The position numbers and the translations under genes are program-made. Shown here one piece after another: positions 27,624 to 30,767 of a stretch of DNA of 51,965 bases. How positions within the stretch are numbered: position 1 is the first letter of the stretch; every line of letters starts with the position of its first letter. The DNA comes from Solirubrobacteraceae bacterium (GTDB lineage: Bacteria; Actinomycetota; Thermoleophilia; Solirubrobacterales; Solirubrobacteraceae). The notes under the pieces are model-generated. The model was not told the DNA's origin. It searched no databases and saw nothing but the letters and a program-made list of their open reading frames with translations. The DNA is taken from assembly GCA_024711025.1 (NCBI GenBank), contig JANJTP010000072.1:1-51965 (forward strand), given 5' to 3'.

Positions 27624-29162
27624 GTGACCGACCAGCTTCGCCGACCGCTCGCCCACCCACGGCTCGGCGTCGACCTCGCCACGACGCTCGACATCGTCGG
27701 AGCCGTGCTGAAGTGGTTCTCGACGGCGTTTGCGGCGCCCGCCGTGGTCGCGCTGATCGCGGGCGAGTCGCCGTGGCCCTTCGTGCTCGCCGGGGTCGCC
27801 GCGCTCGCTGCCGGCCTGGGACTCGATCGCCTCGTCGCCGACCGGGACAGCGAGCCGCTGGGGCCGCGCGAGGGCTTCCTGATGATCGCGCTGGTCTGGC
27901 TGCTCGTGCCAGCGTTCGGGGCACTGCCGTTCCTGCTGAGCGGCGCCGACCAGCTCGCGCGCCCGGTCGATGCCTACTTCGAGGCGGTGTCCGGGTTCAC
28001 GGCCACCGGTGCGACGGTGCTCGACAACGTCGAGTCGCTCGGTCAGGGACTGCTCTTCTGGCGCCAGCTGAGCCACTGGCTCGGGGGCATGGGCATCATC
28101 GTCCTGGCGATCGCCGTGCTGCCGCGACTGCGCGTCGGCGGACGGCACCTGCTGCAGCGGGAGCTGCCGGGGCCGACGGAGATCGAGCGGCTCGGCGCGA
28201 CCGTCCGCGAGACGGCCCGGCGGCTGTGGAAGCTGTACGTGGGGATGACCGTCGTCGGCATCCTGCTGCTGGCCGGAACCGGATGGCTGGGGCTCGACCC
28301 CCGGATGAGCCTGTTCGACGCATTCGCGCACGCGACCTCCGCGGTCTCTCTCGGCGGGTTCTCCACGCAGGCCGAGTCGGCCGGTGCGTTCGCGCCGATC
28401 ACCCAGTGGATCCTGATCGGCCTGATGGTCGTCGCGGGCGTCAACTTCCTGCGTCTCTACCGCCTGATCGTGCTGCGCGAGGTCCGTGCCGTCTCACGCG
28501 ACGAGGAGCTGCGCCTCTACCTCGCGCTGCTCCTGATCGGGACTGCGATCGTGGCCTCCGAGCTGTTCTCGAGCGGTGCGGTGCACGGCTTCGCCGGCGT
28601 TCGCCATGCCGCGTTCCAGACCGTCTCGGTGATGACCACCACCGGCTTCGCCACGCTCGACTGGACGACCTGGGGCGCGCTCGCGACGCTGACGCTGCTG
28701 CTGCTGATGTTCGTCGGCGCGTCGGCCGGCTCGACCGGCGGCTCGATCAAGGTCGTGCGCCACCTGATGCTGTTCCGCCTGGCGCGCCGCGAGCTCGAGA
28801 TCGCCGTGCACCGCGAGGTGGTGATGCCGGTCCGCGTCAGTCGGGTCACGATCGACGAGGGCGCGCTGCGCTCGGCCGTGATGTTCGTCCTGCTCTACCT
28901 CACGGTCTTCGCAGTGGGCTCGCTCGCCCGGGTCATCGACGCCCGACGAGTCGGCGGGGAGCTCGGTGCCTTCGAGGCTCTGGGAGCCGCGGCGGCGTGC
29001 CTGGGCAACGTCGGCCCAGGATTCGGCATCGCGGGGCCGTTCGGGTCGTATTCGAGCTTCAGCGACCTCTCGACCGTGCTCCTCTCGGCGCTCATGTGGC
29101 TTGGCCGCCTGGAGATCGTGCCGGTCGCGGTGCTGCTCACGCGGACGTTCTGGCGGGCGTGA
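27624..29162 (+). CDS. trkH: Trk/Ktr-type potassium transporter membrane subunit TrkH
   Basis: TrkH is the potassium-conducting pore. The 512-residue protein consists of four membrane-pore-membrane units. The filter segments are SGFTATGAT, SLGGFST, MTTTGFATLD and LGNVGPGFG, each with the glycine required for potassium selectivity. A conserved GGSIKVVRH loop gives the gate lysine. The GTG at 27624, just after trkA, is chosen; upstream frame belongs to trkA. The two genes form a complete transporter. Confidence 0.94.
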   Translation: MTDQLRRPLAHPRLGVDLATTLDIVGAVLKWFSTAFAAPAVVALIAGESPWPFVLAGVAALAAGLGLDRLVADRDSEPLGPREGFLMIALVWLLVPAFGALPFLLSGADQLARPVDAYFEAVSGFTATGATVLDNVESLGQGLLFWRQLSHWLGGMGIIVLAIAVLPRLRVGGRHLLQRELPGPTEIERLGATVRETARRLWKLYVGMTVVGILLLAGTGWLGLDPRMSLFDAFAHATSAVSLGGFSTQAESAGAFAPITQWILIGLMVVAGVNFLRLYRLIVLREVRAVSRDEELRLYLALLLIGTAIVASELFSSGAVHGFAGVRHAAFQTVSVMTTTGFATLDWTTWGALATLTLLLLMFVGASAGSTGGSIKVVRHLMLFRLARRELEIAVHREVVMPVRVSRVTIDEGALRSAVMFVLLYLTVFAVGSLARVIDARRVGGELGAFEALGAAAACLGNVGPGFGIAGPFGSYSSFSDLSTVLLSALMWLGRLEIVPVAVLLTRTFWRA

Positions 29163-29208
29163 GGACGGCTCCCCGCCGGCCCGGCGCAGTTCCATCCGAG
29201 CCCCATGG

Positions 29209-29220
29209 GAACATACGTTC
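29209..29220. promoter_or_regulatory. LexA-type (SOS) operator overlapping the nuclease start
   Basis: GAACATACGTTC fits the Gram-positive SOS box GAAC-N4-GTTC, and with one more base each side matches 13 of 14 positions of the Bacillus form CGAACRNRYGTTYC. The flanks extend the symmetry (CCCATGG on both sides, with a one-base offset). TACGTT inside it (29214-29219) is a possible -10 box, and the ATG of the next gene lies four bases downstream. Bound LexA would block initiation. No binding data exist here. Confidence 0.65.
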
Positions 29221-29223
29221 CCC

Positions 29224-29733
29224 ATGGGATCGAGGTGGACACCGAGCGAGAAGGGCGGCATCGCGGAACTCGAGATCGCGGCACACGCCGCCCGCCTCGG
29301 GTTCGTGGTCTCGCGGCCGGTTACGGAGGGCTGCCGGTATGACCTCATCTTCGATGTTGGAGATCGTCTGCTGCGAATCCAATGCAAGTGGGCGTGCCTC
29401 CGGTCCGGAGCCGTCGAGATCCGGTCGAGTACGTGCCGGAACTCTCCCCGTGCGGGGTATCTGCGCGACAGATACGACTCGAGGGAGATCGACGTGGTCG
29501 CCGGATTCTGCGACGCGCTCGACACCGTCTACGCGGTGCCGGTCCACGTCATCAGCGATCGCCATGTGCTCCACCTCCGTGTCGAGCCGCCGAGAAACAA
29601 CCAATCCCGACTTGTACACTGGGCGTCCGATTACGAGCTCGGGGCTATAGCTCAGCTGGGAGAGCGCCGCCATGGCATGGCGGAGGTCGTCGGTTCGAGC
29701 CCGACTAGCTCCACTGGATCGAAGGCCGCCTGA
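29224..29733 (+). CDS. PD-(D/E)XK endonuclease-like protein (group I intron endonuclease type), reading into tRNA-Ala
   Basis: Residues 1-130 resemble the small I-Ssp6803I-type PD-(D/E)XK family. A helix with Glu15 (KGGIAELEIAAHAARLGF) is followed by a strand with Asp40 (CRYDLIFDVG) and Gln53-x-Lys55 (RIQCKWA), the variant Q-x-K active site of that group. Residues 140-164 are not nuclease: they are the tRNA-Ala gene translated (GAIAQLGERR...GSSPTSS), and the TGA lies in the tRNA terminator loop. By hand count the nuclease part is about 64-65 % G+C, with many A/T third positions, below its neighbours, so it was probably acquired. It may be a freestanding homing-type or repair nuclease; substrate unknown. 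Confidence 0.7.
   Translation: MGSRWTPSEKGGIAELEIAAHAARLGFVVSRPVTEGCRYDLIFDVGDRLLRIQCKWACLRSGAVEIRSSTCRNSPRAGYLRDRYDSREIDVVAGFCDALDTVYAVPVHVISDRHVLHLRVEPPRNNQSRLVHWASDYELGAIAQLGERRHGMAEVVGSSPTSSTGSKAA
29615..29620 (+). promoter_or_regulatory. Candidate tRNA-Ala promoter (TACACT) inside the nuclease frame
   Basis: TACACT stands 20 bases before the first tRNA base, giving a 5' leader of about 14 bases for RNase P to remove. It lies in codons 131-133 of the nuclease frame. No -35 box is clear. Confidence 0.45.
29641..29713 (+). tRNA. tRNA-Ala (anticodon GGC)
   Basis: The 73-base cloverleaf is complete: a 7-pair acceptor stem with the G3:U70 alanine identity pair, a 4-pair D arm, CCGCC/GGCGG around the loop ATGGCAT (anticodon GGC, reading GCC and GCU), a five-base variable loop, and GTCGG/CCGAC with TTCGAGC. 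The discriminator is A. CCA is not encoded (ACT follows), so a CCA-adding enzyme is needed. No intron is present. Confidence 0.97.
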
Positions 29734-29750
29734 TGGCGGCCTTCTTCGTT
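29721..29750 (+). terminator. Intrinsic terminator of tRNA-Ala
   Basis: A perfect ten-pair stem (29721-29730 with 29735-29744) with loop TGAT is followed by TTCGTT. The loop contains the stop codon of the overlapping nuclease frame. It separates the rightward island from the leftward DUF2182 gene. Confidence 0.9.
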
Positions 29751-29798
29751 AGCGGCGCGTGGGCGGACAACGCCGCATCGAAGCCCGCGCCGCCCCGA

Positions 29799-30767
29799 TC
29801 ACTGCATGCCGGCGCCGCCGCCGGGGATCGTCAGGCCCGGGATCGCCTCCGGCGCCGCCATCAGCAGGACGCCCAGAGCCACGAGCACGAAGGCGGTGCC
29901 GTACGTCGCCGCTCGCCCCCAGGGGAGTGTCTTCTCCACTGCGATCAGCGCCGCCACCAGCGCCATCCAGGCGAGGCTCATGACACCGAGCGCGAACAGC
30001 GACGCCATCAGCGCCCAGCAGCAGCCCACGCACCATGCGCCGTGTCGGGTGCCCATCCGCAGGGCACCCGACGGCCCGTCGCGCCACGAGCCGAGCAGGA
30101 AGCCGAGCGGGCTGCGGCACTTGGCCAGGCAGACGTCCTTGAAGGGAGTCAGCTCGTAGGCGGCCGCGGCAACGAGCGTGCCGCCGGCCAGCCAGCGACC
30201 GGTGCCATCCCACGACAGCTCGGAGCCGAGCAGGCTACGCCCGAGACTTGAGATGGCGAAGGCGAGCAGCCCCGCGGCCGTCCACGCGAGGAGATAGCCC
30301 GCCGTGAATGCGGCCGGGGCGATCCGCGCCCCGATCGCCCCCACCCTCGGCACTCGAGACACGCCCGCTCCAGGCACGCCGCCGCCCCCCGGAATCGCCA
30401 CCGCGCCCGCTCCAGGCACGCCGCCGCTCCCCGGCGGCGGCACCACGCCCGCTCCGACGCCGCGTGCCGCACCTGCGGCCATCCGCGAGTAGAGGGCGAC
30501 CGTCGGGGCGACCGACGGGAACATCATCGCCGCCATCATCACTACCCACACGCCGACGAACCAGCCGAGCGCCCCGAGATCCGTTCCCGGCCCCTCGTCC
30601 ATGCCCCGCATCGAATCCGCCGTCGACCACCACGCGAGGCCCGCGAGCGCGAGCAGCGTCGCCACCAGAGCCAGGCGGGCCCGTACCGCCGCCAAGGCGG
30701 GATCCGAACCCGCCCGGCGCCCGCGGGAGCGTGCGCCCACCGCGGATGCGGATGCGGCCCGGCTCAC
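29799..30767 (-). CDS. DUF2182 multi-spanning membrane protein with a tandem-repeat loop
   Basis: A 322-residue integral membrane protein of the DUF2182 family, annotated elsewhere as a predicted metal-binding membrane protein. Family marks are MMAAMMFPS near residue 80, YELTPFKDVCLAKCRSP near 204-220, and GAWCVGCCWALM near 243-254; paired Cys and Met residues suggest metal or redox chemistry, not proven. Residues about 101-143 are a Gly/Pro/Ala-rich loop encoded by a 42-base tandem repeat. It starts at a GTG one base after the DUF1326 stop, so the two are cotranscribed. Confidence 0.85.
   Translation of the reverse strand: MSRAASASAVGARSRGRRAGSDPALAAVRARLALVATLLALAGLAWWSTADSMRGMDEGPGTDLGALGWFVGVWVVMMAAMMFPSVAPTVALYSRMAAGAARGVGAGVVPPPGSGGVPGAGAVAIPGGGGVPGAGVSRVPRVGAIGARIAPAAFTAGYLLAWTAAGLLAFAISSLGRSLLGSELSWDGTGRWLAGGTLVAAAAYELTPFKDVCLAKCRSPLGFLLGSWRDGPSGALRMGTRHGAWCVGCCWALMASLFALGVMSLAWMALVAALIAVEKTLPWGRAATYGTAFVLVALGVLLMAAPEAIPGLTIPGGGAGMQ
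30362..30457. repeat. 42-base in-frame tandem repeat in the DUF2182 gene
   Basis: A 24-base core (cgcccgctccaggcacgccg plus ccgc) occurs at 30362-30385 and again at 30404-30427, and its first ten bases recur at 30446-30455. The period is exactly 42 bases, or 14 codons, so copy changes keep the frame. Confidence 0.85.

What the first reader, a model, noticed from the sequence alone, without database searches (positions are those of the whole stretch)
29224..29750. Nuclease reading frame runs straight through a tRNA-Ala gene and stops in its terminator loop
Seen: the frame stays open across all 73 bases of tRNA-Ala(GGC). Codons 140-164 translate the tRNA, and the TGA falls inside the TGAT loop of the tRNA's ten-pair terminator. 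Its body is lower in G+C than its neighbours. Known: I-Ssp6803I-type nucleases are associated with introns in tRNA genes. Inference: this gene may have landed by targeting the 5' flank of a tRNA and lost its own stop, using the tRNA and terminator as its 3' end. That would make a composite of SOS box, nuclease, tRNA and terminator. Translation and tRNA processing would compete on one transcript.
Basis: partly seen in the sequence, partly recalled or inferred. Interest (0 to 1): 0.6.

Follow-up and report, generated by a model that had tools for sequence, protein, structure and literature searches.

The report
Nuclease gene overlapping a tRNA gene
A gene for a DNA-cutting enzyme of the selfish "homing" type sits directly in front of an alanine tRNA gene and is written straight through it, with the tRNA's own promoter hidden in its last codons; relatives show the arrangement is real, recurrent and linked to tRNA genes, and some carry a further protein domain after the tRNA in the same reading frame, so a protein appears to be translated through a working tRNA gene.

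Summary
The PD-(D/E)XK nuclease frame (29224-29733) stays open through tRNA-Ala(GGC) and stops in the terminator loop. It is not a one-off. Of 122 distinct relatives taken from 61-, 232-, 396- and 399-genome surveys, 119 lie next to a tRNA, and nuclease clade tracks tRNA identity and geometry.

In the Ala-GGC clade the nuclease mostly ends 0-32 nt from the tRNA. It either reads through (55 of 84) or ends at the tRNA's own U8-A9-G10 (16). The tRNA's -10 box lies inside the nuclease's last codons (72 of 76 loci; 10 expected). A LexA/SOS box precedes the start; the same motif precedes lexA, dnaE2, imuB and uvrA in this genome. Syntenic empty sites exist.

The strongest point lies outside the window. 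In relatives a Phd/YefM-like domain follows the tRNA, in the nuclease's frame every time, although tRNA and linker lengths change. This implies translation through the tRNA.

Best explanation: an SOS-controlled, free-standing, I-Ssp6803I-type homing endonuclease that targets tRNA genes and is fused to its tRNA. Cleavage, homing and readthrough are inferred, not shown. The stop in the terminator loop is incidental: an empty site has the same stop.

The parts
29209..29220 (.). SOS (LexA) box GAACATACGTTC; the start codon lies 3 nt beyond it
   Evidence: Sequence. Exact motif in 51 of 138 nuclease upstream regions against 0.003 expected per region. Same motif precedes lexA, dnaE2, imuB and uvrA of this genome.
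29224..29733 (+). Nuclease reading frame, 169 codons plus TGA, running through the tRNA gene
29248..29640 (+). PDDEXK_5 (PF11645) domain; active-site residues E15, D40, Q53, K55 present
29615..29620 (+). Putative -10 box TACACT of the tRNA promoter, written inside the nuclease codons V-H-W
   Evidence: TANNNT near this place in 72 of 76 loci against 10.0 (sd 2.8) by synonymous resampling
29641..29713 (+). tRNA-Ala(GGC), the only GGC isoacceptor among the tRNA-Ala hits examined in this genome; also codons 140-164 of the frame
   Evidence: the two other full-length tRNA-Ala hits checked are TGC and CGC
29721..29744 (+). 10-pair hairpin (terminator-like) with the TGA of the frame in its loop
   Evidence: Sequence; similar hairpin and stop phase in empty ortholog L048

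Best explanation
[quoted passage not shown] It is repressed by LexA and made during SOS, when recombinational repair is active. It cuts tRNA-Ala(GGC) loci that lack it, and repair from the occupied allele copies nuclease and tRNA together. It can sit on an essential gene because it ends flush with the 5' end of the tRNA, carries the tRNA's -10 promoter box in its own last codons, and needs no stop codon of its own: it borrows U8-A9-G10 or reads through the tRNA. In several relatives the frame goes on into a Phd/YefM-like DNA-binding domain, so one polypeptide would be nuclease, tRNA-encoded linker and Phd. Shown by sequence comparison: family, tRNA link, embedded -10 box, SOS box, empty sites, frame conservation to Phd. 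Inferred: cleavage of the tRNA locus, homing, SOS induction, and actual translation through the tRNA.
For: Family and fold: (2OST is the top Foldseek match, E 4e-12). tRNA within 700 nt in 119 of 122 distinct relatives; two of the other three are cut by contig ends; the own genome has 47 tRNAs in 3.1 Mb. Clade tracks tRNA identity and geometry: 19 changes against 49.9 shuffled. Phage relatives lie beside tRNAs too, one overlapping tRNA-Val by 21 nt. Empty syntenic sites, patchy presence, and 60 of 158 copies truncated or frameshifted fit a homing life cycle. -10 box in the ORF. SOS box. Phd-like domain in the nuclease's frame in every case, with at least 4 tRNA-length and 12 linker-length changes on the tree, all frame-neutral.
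Against: No cleavage, homing or expression data. The occupied allele keeps an intact tRNA, so if the target lies wholly in the tRNA, self-protection needs explaining. The window copy has no Phd domain and its tail after the tRNA is just terminator sequence. ATG, GTG, TTG or CTG lies in phase within the tRNA or linker of every Phd-bearing locus, so separate initiation of the Phd part is not excluded. Nuclease mobility between hosts is not demonstrated; the tree is weakly resolved.
Confidence: 0.66

Rival explanations
1. Readthrough is a bystander. A nuclease gene abuts a tRNA, has lost its stop, and the frame happens to be open in the tRNA; the extra residues do nothing and are not selected.
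For: Most tRNA-Ala(GGC) genes are open in this phase (67 of 74 without Phd). In the window the tail is terminator sequence, and the same stop phase exists in an empty site. In the Gaiellaceae-like family, phases with readthrough and with a stop at U8-A9-G10 both occur.
Against: Does not explain a conserved Phd-like domain in frame in every relative that has one, with compensated length changes, nor its codon-position pattern (third position most variable, dN/dS about 0.43).
Confidence: 0.4
2. Domesticated SOS nuclease. The gene once homed but is now kept by the host for a repair or defence role, and the tRNA link is historical.
For: SOS control, catalytic motif kept in 102 of 105 full-length copies, fixed genomic place.
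Against: Patchy presence, frequent decay, several tRNA targets and phage relatives in tRNA clusters look selfish rather than domesticated.
Confidence: 0.15
3. Cleave-and-rescue element. The nuclease cuts ordinary tRNA-Ala(GGC) genes and its own linked tRNA is an immune, recoded copy that rescues the cell.
For: The tRNA is carried in the same frame, and the anticodon stem is very variable while staying paired: 32 stem sequences in 86 occupied alleles. SegB cuts within tRNA genes (PMC13096335).
Against: Anticodon stems are variable in empty alleles as well (12 in 29); no target site is known.
Confidence: 0.2
4. Integration hotspot. tRNA genes attract integrases, and the nuclease is ordinary cargo.
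For: tRNA genes are common attachment sites (general knowledge; PMC8371274).
Against: No recombinase seen next to it and no repeated tRNA fragment over 10 nt in the 5 kb around. The junction is at the 5' end with mostly 0-32 nt spacing, unlike 3'-end attachment sites.
Confidence: 0.03

Closest known systems
I-Ssp6803I, PD-(D/E)XK homing endonuclease of Synechocystis (PDB 2OST, Pfam PF11645)
   Same: Same family by sequence and predicted fold, same catalytic pattern; tied to a tRNA gene (tRNA-fMet, general knowledge)
   Different: I-Ssp6803I is encoded in a group I intron inside the tRNA. Here no intron is found, and the gene lies outside the tRNA, overlaps it and contains its promoter box.
SegB of phages T4/T6 (GIY-YIG, free-standing)
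   Same: Free-standing homing endonuclease beside tRNA genes, cuts within tRNA sequences, spreads the tRNA region (PMC13096335)
   Different: Unrelated nuclease family, phage not chromosome, and I know of no reading through the tRNA or SOS box in that system
HNH endonuclease genes in tRNA clusters of mycobacteria
   Same: Homing-type nuclease genes lying among tRNA genes in Actinobacteria (PMC6582537)
   Different: Different nuclease, large horizontally acquired clusters, no overlap described in the passages read
Archaeal suicidal tyrosine integrases (SSV1, pT26-2)
   Same: A protein-coding gene that contains part of a tRNA sequence as its attachment site (PMC8371274, and general knowledge)
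   Different: Only part of the tRNA, the gene is split on integration, and it acts by site-specific recombination

Membership tests
PDDEXK_5 / I-Ssp6803I nuclease family | Sequence match above the curated cut-off | tested here: met
   107 bits against 26.1
PDDEXK_5 / I-Ssp6803I nuclease family | PD-(D/E)XK fold | tested here: met
   Model of relative L203: 2OST is the best match, TM 0.76 by target, E 4e-12; the window protein itself matches 2OST by sequence
PDDEXK_5 / I-Ssp6803I nuclease family | Catalytic E, D, Q-x-K | tested here: met
   E15, D40, Q53, K55 conserved in alignment A1; that these are the catalytic residues rests on the family literature
Group I intron-encoded homing endonuclease | Lies within a group I intron | tested here: not met
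   Rfam scan of 28900-30000 finds only the tRNA above its cut-off; the tRNA is uninterrupted
Free-standing homing endonuclease gene | Presence/absence polymorphism with syntenic empty sites | tested here: met
Free-standing homing endonuclease gene | Cleaves the empty allele near the insertion site and is copied into it | not testable with these tools
   Needs enzyme and cross-strain assays
LexA regulon gene | LexA box at the promoter, same motif as at known SOS genes of the genome | tested here: met
   binding and induction not tested
Type II toxin-antitoxin antitoxin (PhdYeFM, PF02604) | Phd DNA-binding half plus a toxin-binding half | tested here: not met
   Tails of relatives match only the first ~40 of 74 positions; absent in the window. 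Adjacent toxin genes were not looked for in the relatives.
tRNA-targeted integrative element | Recombinase and repeated tRNA fragment | tested here: not met
   No repeated tRNA fragment over 10 nt; no recombinase noticed among the ORFs near it, though not every ORF was scanned

The most novel reading that the evidence does not exclude
A functional tRNA gene, with its promoter, is nested sense-strand inside a conserved protein-coding gene, and ribosomes translate through it: nuclease, tRNA-encoded linker and Phd-like DNA-binding domain as one protein. The gene is a selfish element that carries its essential target with it, a natural analogue of a cleave-and-rescue drive under SOS control.
Probability: 0.45. 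Interest if true: 0.88.

Novelty: new variant of a known kind. Interest (0 to 1): 0.74.

Why it matters
If true, this is a dual-use stretch of DNA that is at once protein code, tRNA promoter and tRNA. It would show how a selfish nuclease can settle on an essential tRNA without an intron, by ending flush with the tRNA and supplying the promoter. It would make a whole Pfam family (PDDEXK_5) predictable as tRNA-gene-bound homing enzymes across Actinobacteriota and phages. The Phd-bearing relatives give a direct test of whether ribosomes can translate through a gene that must also fold and be processed as tRNA, and of how the two uses of one RNA are balanced.

Tried and rejected
Group I intron: no Rfam match. 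Integrase/att-site origin: no repeated tRNA fragment over 10 nt. Special stop in the terminator loop: the same phase and stop occur in nuclease-free L048. Target site from anticodon-stem differences between occupied and empty alleles: both are variable, inconclusive. First profile for the search for related loci was too diverse; a narrower one gave 40 named loci. Literature searches for tRNA genes read through by a protein gene, for this family beside tRNAs, and for Thermoleophilia gave nothing on point; the library holds only open-licence papers, so prior reports elsewhere are possible. The third phase of the tRNA (codons starting at base 3) is used by 0 of 84 nucleases; no explanation found.

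Full report
What is there. A frame from ATG 29224 runs 169 codons to TGA 29731-29733. Its first 139 residues are a PDDEXK_5 nuclease (Pfam E 1e-30; PDB 2OST I-Ssp6803I E 1e-9). Codons 140-164 are tRNA-Ala(GGC), called independently by ARAGORN and Rfam. The stop lies in the loop of a 10-pair hairpin. GAACATACGTTC at 29209-29220 precedes the start. The body is 64.3% G+C against 72.7% for the window.

It recurs. PF11645 was found in 21 of 61 relatives, 74 of 232 genomes of the order, 106 of 399 of the class and 33 of 396 of the phylum; these samples overlap. Named relatives are Thermoleophilia, mostly Solirubrobacterales and Gaiellaceae-like bins. In the first 30 loci read, every nuclease sat near a tRNA. 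Over 122 distinct loci the number is 119, with two of the three exceptions at contig ends. With 47 tRNAs in a 3.1 Mb genome, about 2% would be expected by chance. tRNA identities and geometries include Ala-GGC downstream in the same direction (71), Tyr-GTA, Ala-TGC (mostly convergent), Thr-TGT (mostly divergent), Arg-CCG, Arg-TCT and Thr-CGT. On the nuclease tree these labels need 19 changes against 49.9 when shuffled, and 70 of 71 Ala-GGC copies fall in one supported clade. Phage relatives behave alike: beside tRNA-Met in a Salmonella phage, overlapping tRNA-Val by 21 nt in a Synechococcus phage, within a tRNA cluster in a Klebsiella phage, just after tRNA-Asn in a halovirus. An Enterococcus phage and a haloarchaeal plasmid copy have no annotated tRNA nearby (the plasmid table lists no RNA genes).

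Empty sites. In the window's genus, G016 (L048) has leuS, a hydrolase gene, tRNA-Ala(GGC) and rsfS without nuclease; the window has leuS, trkA, trkH, nuclease, tRNA, two more genes and rsfS. In genus g44 the upstream gene ends 35-62 nt before the tRNA in six empty genomes and 476-509 nt before it in three occupied ones, and the downstream gene is displaced too by the Phd-like tail. So the locus exists with and without the nuclease. About 60 of 158 distinct copies are truncated or frameshifted (some are cut by contig ends), as expected of a homing gene that spreads and decays. Loss in the empty genomes is not formally excluded.

Ends and promoters. In 84 Ala-GGC loci with an intact nuclease end, 55 read through the tRNA, 5 stop inside it, 16 stop at the tRNA's U8-A9-G10 (TAG), and 8 have their own stop. 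The tRNA's -10 box, TANNNT, is inside the last nuclease codons in 72 of 76 loci, against 10.0 (sd 2.8) when codons are resampled synonymously and 10 of 76 at a control position. In the window it is TACACT at 29615-29620. So the tRNA need not depend on the nuclease promoter. The nuclease promoter region carries an exact GAACN4GTTC in 51 of 138 loci against 0.003 expected per region. In this genome the same motif precedes or overlaps the starts of lexA, imuB, dnaE2 and uvrA, so it is very likely the LexA site.

Beyond the tRNA. In relatives (not in the window) the frame continues into a domain matching the first ~40 positions of PhdYeFM_antitox. All such domains found, 24 locus records before the named set was added, are in the phase of the tRNA start and, where the nuclease end is intact, of the nuclease. 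tRNA length (73 or 74 nt) changes at least 4 times and linker length at least 12 times on the nuclease tree; every combination is a multiple of three. Where the D-loop has one more base, the second half of the tRNA is read in another frame and the linker compensates. Ten of 24 have no ATG, GTG or TTG in phase between tRNA start and domain, but those ten all have an in-phase CTG, so separate initiation is not excluded. The domain shows most change at third codon positions and median dN/dS 0.43. AlphaFold gives a confident nuclease and a confident Phd-like fold joined by a low-confidence tRNA-encoded stretch; Foldseek finds 2OST first, and VapB46 and a prevent-host-death protein for the tail.

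How it most likely works. Shown: the anatomy, the tRNA association, the embedded -10 box, the SOS box, presence/absence at the same place, and frame conservation across the tRNA in Phd-bearing relatives. Inferred: SOS induction, cutting of empty tRNA loci, copying by recombinational repair, and translation through the tRNA. A long SOS transcript would hold nuclease code and tRNA; RNase P cutting would leave nuclease mRNA without a stop, which may hold nuclease output low. This last step is speculation.

Compared with the known. The enzyme belongs to the I-Ssp6803I family, but the intron that defines that system is absent. It works most like SegB, a free-standing homing endonuclease that cuts in tRNA genes and spreads the tRNA region (PMC13096335; PMC6582537, cites the T4 work). 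Archaeal suicidal integrases (PMC8371274) are the nearest case known to me of a protein gene containing tRNA sequence, but only a part of it. I found no report of this family as tRNA-flanking genes or of a protein gene read through a whole functional tRNA, within an open-licence library only.

Verdict. Observation confirmed; interpretation partly supported and enlarged. The stop in the terminator loop is incidental; the tRNA overlap, embedded promoter and in-frame Phd tail of relatives are the real finding.

Noticed in passing
L048, L049, L034: the 40 nt before tRNA-Ala(GGC): Some nuclease-free alleles keep a short stretch before the tRNA that looks like the nuclease C-terminus (for example L049 'VNWAPQFER' then tRNA), so tRNA promoters there may be nuclease relics.
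   Followed up: partly
tRNA-Ala(GGC) genes, many loci: The anticodon stem is highly variable with pairing kept (32 sequences in 86 occupied, 12 in 29 empty alleles), and positions 32/38 are often complementary C-G, G-C or A-T.
   Followed up: partly
Ala-GGC nuclease loci: Of the three phases in which a nuclease could meet the tRNA, one (codons starting at tRNA base 3) is used by none of 84 loci.
   Followed up: no
29190-29198 and upstream of many nuclease genes: A recurrent motif TTCCGTCCG / CCGTCCG (window: TTCCATCCG) lies shortly upstream of the SOS box; it may be a -35 element or a target half-site.
   Followed up: no
L121 (G277:C1:1006443-1007251) and L027 (G026:C4:129931-130735): Two PDDEXK_5 copies in tandem near tRNA-Ala(TGC).
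   Followed up: no
L196 and L229 record titles: Records titled Bifidobacterium breve and Chlamydiae hold this Solirubrobacterales-like locus; probably misnamed bins.
   Followed up: no
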